Shown here piece by piece: positions 16,661 through 27,365 of a stretch of DNA of 46,163 nucleotides (positions within the stretch are counted from its first letter, which is position 1; each line of letters starts with the position of its first letter). The notes below the pieces were generated by a model. It saw nothing but the letters and a program-made list of their open reading frames with translations. It did no database searches and had not been told where the DNA came from. Both the position numbers and the translations under genes were made by a program. The DNA comes from Patescibacteria group bacterium (lineage in GTDB: Bacteria > Patescibacteriota > Microgenomatia > UBA1400 > PJMF01), in contig JACFOI010000007.1 in the NCBI GenBank assembly GCA_019454415.1, positions 1-46,163 of the forward strand, read 5' to 3'.

Positions 16661-16693
16661 CACGCAGGTATTTCAAAACCTAAACAGAACTAA

Positions 16694-16717
16694 AAATCCC
16701 CGCTTGCGCGGGGATTT
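16694..16717 (-). terminator. Bidirectional terminator between T4SS-pilin and RRM genes
   Basis: A 10-bp stem, AAATCCCCGC with GCGGGGATTT, has a TTGC loop. The minus strand ends in five T, ending the RRM transcript. The plus strand has ATTTCC and could end the convergent pilin transcript less efficiently. Confidence 0.82.
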
Positions 16718-16737
16718 CCTTGTTTCTTAAACAGTGT

Positions 16738-17151
16738 TTATCTGTCTCGGTTATCTCGACGGAAGTTGTCGCGTCGTCCACCACCGAAGCCTCCTCGGCC
16801 TCCGCGGTCTCCGCCACGATCACCGCGAGGTTGCCACTCGTTACGTGGTTTAGGTGGTTGCGCAACGTTCACTGCGATTTGGCGACCGTCAACTTCTCGT
16901 TGGTGTAAACCAGCGACAGCTGCTTGGGCCTCCTCATCGGTGGACATCGTTACAAAACCGAAACCTTTTGAACGGCCGGAGAACTTGTCGGTGAGAACAA
17001 AAGCTTCCTCAACAGTGCCGAACTCAGCAAATAACTGCTGAAGATCTTCACTGGTTAAGTTCCAGCTCAAGTTACCAACAAAAAGTTTTCTCGGGTTCAC
17101 ACCAGCTTGCGCTTGGGGTGCCGTTGCTTGATCTTGGGTATGATCTGACAT
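16738..17151 (-). CDS. RRM RNA-binding protein with RGG tail
   Basis: This 137-aa protein has one RNA recognition motif. RNP2 is KLFVGNLSW at about residues 22-30 and RNP1 is KGFGFVTM at about 62-69. A Gly/Arg/Asp-rich tail follows (RGDRGGDRGGRGGFGGGRR, ending DNFRRDNRDR). It binds RNA in the cytoplasm. Similar small RRM proteins in cyanobacteria and other bacteria often respond to cold, which is family knowledge. I chose ATG 17151 over the in-frame TTG one codon upstream. GAGGTGAG lies 9 nt before it, but that Shine-Dalgarno can be sequestered by the leader. The leader is about 145 nt and strongly structured, and the promoter faces that of the SAM hydroxide adenosyltransferase gene. Confidence 0.95.
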   Translation of the reverse strand: MSDHTQDQATAPQAQAGVNPRKLFVGNLSWNLTSEDLQQLFAEFGTVEEAFVLTDKFSGRSKGFGFVTMSTDEEAQAAVAGLHQREVDGRQIAVNVAQPPKPRNEWQPRGDRGGDRGGRGGFGGGRRDNFRRDNRDR

Positions 17152-17160
17152 CAAAAAATA

Positions 17161-17184
17161 CTCACCTCTTTTCTTAATGGTGAG
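17161..17184 (-). promoter_or_regulatory. Hairpin that masks the Shine-Dalgarno of the RRM gene
   Basis: On the minus strand CTCACC (17184-17179) can pair with GGTGAG (17166-17161), the core of the Shine-Dalgarno, across a 12-nt A-rich loop. This 6-bp stem would block ribosome binding and could act as a temperature or protein-controlled switch. Confidence 0.5.
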
Positions 17185-17201
17185 GATGGGAAAGAAAGTA
17201 T

Positions 17202-17246
17202 CAGCGGACCTGAACCCACGTTCCTACCTACTGCTCAGGGCCGCTG
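17202..17246 (-). promoter_or_regulatory. Long hairpin in the leader of the RRM gene
   Basis: CAGCGG (17202-17207) pairs with CCGCTG (17241-17246) and CCTGA (17209-17213) with TCAGG (17235-17239), with one mismatch between the two blocks and a 21-nt loop. No T-tract follows, so it is not a terminator. It lies within the predicted minus-strand leader. Confidence 0.55.
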
Positions 17247-17303
17247 TGATCAATGCTTTTTGCACACTGAGTACAGGGATGAACACTCAAATAACTGTAA
17301 TCT

Positions 17304-17342
17304 ATTATACAACATGCTCTGCAATAGGGAGCATGGTATACT
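17304..17342. promoter_or_regulatory. Divergent promoters around a palindromic operator
   Basis: A minus-strand TATAAT (17309-17304) for the RRM gene and a plus-strand TATACT (17337-17342) for the SAM hydroxide adenosyltransferase gene lie back to back. Between them the perfect inverted repeat CATGCTC (17313-17319) and GAGCATG (17329-17335) is centred on 17324 with a 9-nt spacer. It covers the -35 region of both promoters, so one bound dimer could control both. Confidence 0.55.
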
Positions 17343-27015: not shown

Positions 27016-27356
27016 GTGTGTGGCCGAACGATGGCCTTCTCTTCCTTTGGAGGAGAGGGAGGAAAGTCCGGACAGCAGAACATAGGGTGTCTTGCGAAAG
27101 CAAGAGGGTTGGCTACTGCAAGGTAATCAACAACAGTCGAGCAACAGTGACGATACGGGTGGCGCCGTGTGAAACGACCAAGCTTCTGGGTACGGTCTTC
27201 CCTGTCAAGGAAGGTGCCGTGGCAATCCTCCCCGCTGCAACTGACGAACTTCACCTGAATCGAGATGTTCCGTATAGGTCGCAAGACCGAGGTGATAAAG
27301 CTGCAGGCATTAGAGAAATCATCGTAAGAACAGAATCCGGCTTACGAGCCACACAC
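27016..27356 (+). ncRNA. rnpB: RNase P RNA
   Basis: This is the catalytic RNA that trims the 5' leader from pre-tRNAs such as the two tRNAs in the window. It has the universal core at both ends: GAGGAAAGTCCGGAC at about 27057-27071 and ACAGAATCCGGCTTAC at about 27330-27345, which form the P4 region. A perfect 9-bp P1 helix closes the molecule: GTGTGTGGC (27016-27024) with GCCACACAC (27348-27356). TTGCGAAAGCAA is a GNRA-capped stem and GGTCGCAAGACC another. The total of 341 nt is usual for bacterial A-type RNAs. The ends are set by P1 and may be off by a few bases. Confidence 0.96.
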
Positions 27357-27365
27357 AATTTGCTT

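What the first reader, a model, noticed from the sequence alone, without database searches (positions are those of the whole stretch)
17152..17300. RRM protein messenger with long structured, self-masking leader
Most neighbours seem leaderless, yet this gene has about 145 nt between its predicted start site and its ATG. The leader holds a hairpin of 11 pairs with one mismatch (17202-17246) and a 6-bp stem that pairs CTCACC with the Shine-Dalgarno GGTGAG (17161-17184). The product is an RRM-RGG protein, so autoregulation or temperature control is plausible.
Basis: partly seen in the sequence, partly recalled or inferred. Interest (0 to 1): 0.72.

Follow-up and report, generated by a model that had tools for sequence, protein, structure and literature searches.

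The report
Structured leader controlling bacterial RRM protein
In a tiny, uncultured bacterium (Patescibacteria/CPR), the message for a small RNA-binding protein starts with a long folded leader that is kept almost letter for letter in a distant sister species, and is therefore very probably a switch that sets how much of the protein is made, perhaps read by the protein itself.

Summary
On the minus strand, the RRM-RGG gene (ATG at 17151) has a perfect TATAAT at 17304-17309 and no credible nearer promoter, giving a leader of about 145 nt; several neighbours have their -10 box 12-17 nt before the ATG. The leader has hairpin I (17250-17270), hairpin II (17202-17246; 13 pairs, one mismatch) and a 6-bp stem masking the Shine-Dalgarno (17161-17184).

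Conservation makes it more than a fold. In the only same-genus genome found, fourfold-degenerate sites are saturated (33% identical), yet hairpin II matches at 44 of 45 bases, loop included. Stems I and SD persist while loops diverge. Base-pair covariation cannot be tested in this genus (two sequences), but is clear in RRM-gene leaders of two other lineages. A 5'-terminal box (AGUWW about 6 nt after TATAAT) recurs in RRM leaders of 20 of 49 genera in the order.

Best reading: a cis-regulatory leader gating translation, hairpin II being a recognition element, most likely for the RRM protein itself (untested). Simple thermometer melting is not supported: predicted masking persists from 5 to 60 C.

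The parts
17304..17309 (-). -10 box TATAAT of the RRM gene (predicted)
   Evidence: Perfect hexamer; also present upstream in G001 (145 nt) and G015 (177 nt); no mapped transcription start
17277..17296 (-). 5'-terminal box AGTTATTTGAGTGTTCATCC at the predicted transcript start
   Evidence: 14-nt core TTGAGTGTTCATCC identical in G001; AGTWW at this position in 34 of 79 RRM-leader -10 boxes against 4 of 175 others; 20 of 49 genera in the order
17250..17270 (-). Hairpin I, TCAGTG...CATTGA
   Evidence: 6-bp stem kept in G001, loop replaced and shortened
17202..17246 (-). Hairpin II, 13 pairs, one mismatch, 17-nt G-rich loop AGTAGGTAGGAACGTGG (17216-17232)
   Evidence: 44 of 45 bases identical in G001, the one change turning G-C into G-U; single copy in the genome; not found in other genera
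17179..17184 (-). Anti-SD arm CTCACC
   Evidence: Pairs with 17161-17166; kept in G001
17161..17168 (-). Shine-Dalgarno GAGGTGAG, masked
   Evidence: Predicted unpaired fraction 0.17 at 37 C; 0.02 in G001; masked by a different helix in G015
16738..17151 (-). Gene for a 137-aa single-RRM protein with a C-terminal RGG tail
   Evidence: PF00076, 75.7 bits; in 78 of 88 genomes of the order
16692..16719 (-). Intrinsic terminator between the convergent genes
   Evidence: 12-pair stem followed by T-rich tail

Best explanation
The 145-nt leader is a cis-acting RNA regulator of translation of the RRM-RGG protein. Default state: the SD is held in a stable local hairpin, so initiation is weak. Hairpin II is the recognition element that sets the output, its loop (tandem UAGG) being a landing site for a trans factor. 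The likeliest factor is the RRM protein itself, giving feedback control of an RNA chaperone that stands in for the missing cold-shock-domain proteins. Shown: conserved leader, stems and loop, SD masking in silico, no CSD or CsrA gene found in the genome. Inferred: that it regulates translation, the identity of the factor, and the sign of the effect. Rough confidence: conserved cis-regulatory RNA 0.85; acts on translation initiation 0.6; feedback by the RRM protein 0.4.
For: Long leader with a strong -10 box, kept in G001 and G015. Hairpin II 44/45 identical where fourfold sites are only 33% identical. Single copy, in cis to the RRM gene in both genomes. Stems I and SD kept with diverged loops. 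G015 masks the same SD with a different helix, CCTC-t-TTTC/GAAA-t-GAGG. RRM leaders in other lineages are structured too, with covariation: g4 hairpin, 3 of 8 pairs changed on both sides and 100% of cells paired; f11 hairpin, 5 of 9 pairs. RRM-specific 5' box across the order. No CSD protein in 42 of 42 family genomes, no CsrA in G000.
Against: Only two sequences of this leader exist in the data, so its own stems lack a covariation test: one G-C to G-U change in hairpin II, one compensatory pair in a possible 5' stem. SD masking is not enriched over shuffles across RRM leaders as a group (mean 0.37 against 0.34), and for G000 itself 8 of 40 shuffles mask as well. No binding or expression data. 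The UAGG-type recognition is an analogy with hnRNP A1 and Musashi, not a test.
Confidence: 0.5

Rival explanations
1. Cold-responsive leader without protein feedback: the RNA changes fold, or is stabilised, in the cold and raises synthesis of the RRM chaperone, as described for cyanobacterial rbp and bacterial csp genes.
For: CSD proteins are absent from the family while RRM is nearly universal. Cyanobacterial class I rbp genes are reported to carry conserved 5'-UTR boxes for cold response (PMC9333190, citing Maruyama 1999). A 5'-terminal box exists here too.
Against: Predicted fold and SD masking hardly change with temperature. Sequences of the cyanobacterial boxes could not be compared, the papers not being held.
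Confidence: 0.25
2. Classical RNA thermometer: the SD hairpin melts on warming and frees the ribosome site.
For: SD paired in a local hairpin next to the start codon.
Against: Predicted unpaired fraction of the SD 0.13 at 5 C and 0.21 at 60 C in G000, 0.06 or less in G001 throughout.
Confidence: 0.05
3. Hairpin II senses a small molecule (riboswitch aptamer) or another protein or RNA, not the RRM protein.
For: The whole loop is conserved, as in aptamers. No Rfam family matches it.
Against: Confined to one genus and one gene for an RNA-binding protein; CsrA, which binds GGA loops, was not found.
Confidence: 0.15
4. Transcription attenuator: hairpin II or the SD hairpin ends transcription early.
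For: Hairpin II is strong (-23 kcal/mol).
Against: No terminator-like site in the leader by scan; the stretch after hairpin II (ATACTTTCTTTCCC) lacks a T run and is not fully conserved.
Confidence: 0.04
5. The conserved block is a DNA site or peptide-coding stretch and not an RNA element.
For: A TTG-started frame ends at the same TAG in loop II in both genomes (sequences).
Against: The middle of that frame is shifted between the genomes and its residues are not kept; the block sits about 50-95 nt downstream of the predicted start and forms a 13-pair hairpin in both.
Confidence: 0.05

Closest known systems
Leaders of cold-regulated cyanobacterial rbp genes (rbpA1 of Anabaena, rbp1 of Synechocystis)
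   Same: Single RRM with Gly-rich tail; conserved 5'-UTR boxes reported for class I genes (PMC9333190); 5'-UTR linked to cold expression (titles cited in PMC6091082)
   Different: Box sequences could not be compared; hairpin II and the masked SD are not described there as far as I know; cold response untested here
cspA-type cold-shock mRNA leaders
   Same: Long leader of an RNA chaperone with a conserved element at the transcript's 5' end (from general knowledge)
   Different: The protein is an RRM protein, not a cold-shock-domain protein; no CSD gene found in the genome
Autoregulated ribosomal-protein and RNase E leaders
   Same: A conserved hairpin in the mRNA leader of an RNA-binding protein, single copy, in cis
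   Different: The presumed binding protein is of the RRM class; binding not shown
Engineered Musashi-1 repression in E. coli (PMC10942595)
   Same: An RRM protein represses translation in a bacterium by binding a stem-loop bearing two UAG cores
   Different: Engineered, eukaryotic protein, site placed after the start codon; here natural, and binding is only proposed

Membership tests
Cyanobacterial-type cold-regulated rbp leader | Gene codes for a single-RRM protein with Gly-rich C-terminus | tested here: met
   PF00076 hit and RGG tail
Cyanobacterial-type cold-regulated rbp leader | Conserved cold boxes in the 5' UTR of the cyanobacterial sequence type | not testable with these tools
   Source papers not held
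Cyanobacterial-type cold-regulated rbp leader | Transcript or protein rises in the cold | not testable with these tools
   No expression data; uncultured organism
RNA thermometer (ROSE, fourU type) | SD-masking helix opens over the growth temperature range | tested here: not met
   In silico masking stable from 5 to 60 C
RNA thermometer (ROSE, fourU type) | Match to a curated thermometer family | tested here: not met
   No Rfam match in the leader
Known riboswitch or ribosomal-protein leader family | Covariance-model match in Rfam 15 | tested here: not met
   None at gathering; at E<=10 only a chance snoRNA hit on the other strand; none in 20 related loci
cspA-type leader | Downstream gene encodes a cold-shock-domain protein | tested here: not met
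   RRM gene; no CSD in G000
Autoregulatory protein-binding leader | Conserved structured element in cis, with the SD or start region inside a fold | tested here: met
   Hairpin II conservation, SD hairpin in G000, G001 and G015
Autoregulatory protein-binding leader | The encoded protein binds the leader | not testable with these tools
   Needs a binding assay

The most novel reading that the evidence does not exclude
Across this class of Patescibacteria, RRM-protein mRNAs form an undescribed regulatory set: a shared 5'-terminal AGUWW box plus fast-evolving, clade-specific structured leaders, through which an RRM chaperone that replaced cold-shock-domain proteins controls its own translation.
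Probability: 0.3. Interest if true: 0.78.

Novelty: new variant of a known kind. Interest (0 to 1): 0.57.

Why it matters
Regulation by RNA is almost unexplored in Patescibacteria: searches pairing these bacteria with RRM or cold-shock proteins, or the candidate phyla radiation with structured RNA and riboswitches, found nothing in the library. If right, the leader would be a natural bacterial case of an RRM protein governing its own mRNA through an SD gate, and would suggest that lineages without cold-shock-domain proteins, cyanobacteria and these, arrived at RRM chaperones with regulated leaders. It also shows that leaders of one gene can change wholesale between genera while staying structured, which helps explain why family databases miss them.

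Tried and rejected
Rfam search of window and leader: no family. Exact, mismatched and covariance-model searches for hairpin II beyond the genus: nothing. Thermometer by melting: rejected in silico. Pseudoknot between loop II (GGUAGG) and the anti-SD arm: pairing no better than shuffled loops, 1093 of 2000 as good. CsrA as the loop-II reader: gene not found. Terminator or attenuator: no site. SD masking as a general property of RRM leaders: not above shuffles. A TTTTCCC motif enriched in RRM leaders looked promising but is not conserved between G000 and G001.

Full report
WHAT WAS CHECKED. The gene lies on the minus strand: ATG at 17151, 137 aa, one RRM domain (PF00076, 75.7 bits) and an RGG tail. 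The window is contig C32 of a 1.08-Mb genome, 94.8% complete; the matching contig of the same-genus genome G001 carries the record name Patescibacteria group bacterium UBA924. A perfect TATAAT sits at 17304-17309, so transcription probably starts near 17296-17298 and the leader is about 145 nt. Several neighbours have their -10 box 12-17 nt before the ATG and look leaderless; others do not.

IS IT MORE THAN CHANCE? Folding alone says little (z -1.8). Comparison says a lot. Contig C7 of G001 is largely syntenic with the window from 16166 onwards. Over 26 homologous frames, fourfold-degenerate sites are 33% identical, i.e. saturated (two of these frames overlap RNase P RNA and inflate the figure slightly). 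In that background the leader holds 39 consecutive identical bases, and hairpin II as a whole is 44/45, the single change turning a G-C into a G-U pair. The other identical runs of at least 30 bases in the same comparison are a tRNA, RNase P RNA and a 71-base stretch of the RRM gene itself. Hairpin I keeps its stem (TCAGTG/CATTGA) while its loop is replaced; the SD hairpin keeps CTCACC/GGTGAG while its loop drifts. In G015 (75% protein identity) hairpin II is absent but the same SD is masked by a different helix. RNAalifold on the two leaders gives hairpin II and the SD hairpin, plus a 5' stem with one compensatory pair; hairpin I is not in that consensus because the alignment slips in its loop.

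HOW GENERAL IS IT? The RRM gene is found in 78 of 88 genomes of the order. Its leaders are usually 50-180 nt from a good -10 box. Sequences differ between genera, but there is structure. In genus g4 a hairpin near the 5' end has all cells paired and three pairs changed on both sides. In family f11 a hairpin with a conserved GATGAT loop has five pairs changed on both sides. The most widely shared element is at the predicted 5' end: AGTWW about 6 nt after the -10 box in 34 of 79 RRM-leader boxes against 4 of 175 others, and 23 of 50 against 1 of 17 when only extended -10 boxes outside long frames are compared. By genus it is in 20 of 49 in the order (7 of 15 families) and 5 of 20 in a further class-level sample. 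These counts are not phylogenetically independent. Hairpin II itself was not found outside the genus.

HOW IT PROBABLY WORKS. The SD is masked in G000, G001 and G015 and, in silico, at every temperature from 5 to 60 C. A melting thermometer is therefore unlikely; something must open or reinforce the hairpin. Hairpin II, whose whole loop is kept, is the natural place for a trans factor. The gene codes for an RNA-binding protein, and the loop AGUAGGUAGGAACGUGG shows two UAGG units of the kind hnRNP A1 and Musashi RRMs like (general knowledge; UAG as the Musashi core in PMC10942595). Feedback by the RRM protein is thus my first choice, at about 0.4. Neither binding nor the sign of the effect is shown. 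No CsrA and no cold-shock-domain protein was found in the genome; the latter is absent from all 42 genomes of the family and found above cut-off in only 11 of 88 in the order. An RRM chaperone filling that place, as in cyanobacteria, would need regulated supply.

COMPARISON WITH WHAT IS KNOWN. [quoted passage not shown]). The present leader resembles that kind in outline; membership cannot be claimed, since the box sequences could not be compared and cold response is untestable here. No Rfam family matches, and no held paper pairs Patescibacteria with the RNA recognition motif.

LIMITS. Two sequences only for this leader; no mapped start; all folding is thermodynamic prediction; start codons of the comparison genes were chosen by rule; E-values and shuffles ignore relatedness. 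SD masking is not enriched across RRM leaders in general, so the gate is claimed only for this genus and G015.

Noticed in passing
window 16754-16824 (-): 71 bases coding for the RGG tail are identical in G001, and the RRM gene's fourfold sites are 67% identical (other genes about 30%, ribosomal-protein operon 46%). The G-rich RGG-coding RNA may itself be a binding site, compare PMC11789052 on RGG-coding G-quadruplexes in autoregulation.
   Followed up: partly
window 27016-27360 (+): RNase P RNA (RF00010, 89.4 bits, E 8e-28), just below Rfam's gathering score of 100 and so missed by a default scan; it overlaps a spurious 144-aa frame.
   Followed up: yes
L064, L067-L070, L072, L074-L076, L078, L083 (family f11): RRM leaders start GTTAAATCATCT(T)AAC and carry a covarying hairpin with a GATGAT loop, complementary to the ATCATC near the 5' end: a possible kissing interaction or pseudoknot.
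   Followed up: partly
L007, L012, L037, L039, L043 (family f5): RRM leaders with GGCAC that can pair with the SD region GGAGGTGCC (stem invariant, loop variable) or, in predicted folds, with GTG of the 5' box: a possible two-state switch.
   Followed up: no
L013, L014, L015, L021, L025, L031, L036 (family f1): Leaders with CTGAG...CTCAG...CTGAG, which allows two mutually exclusive hairpins before the SD.
   Followed up: no
order-wide genomes G000-G087: Cold-shock-domain proteins above cut-off only in 10 genomes of family f11 and one of f2, although RRM proteins are nearly universal.
   Followed up: partly
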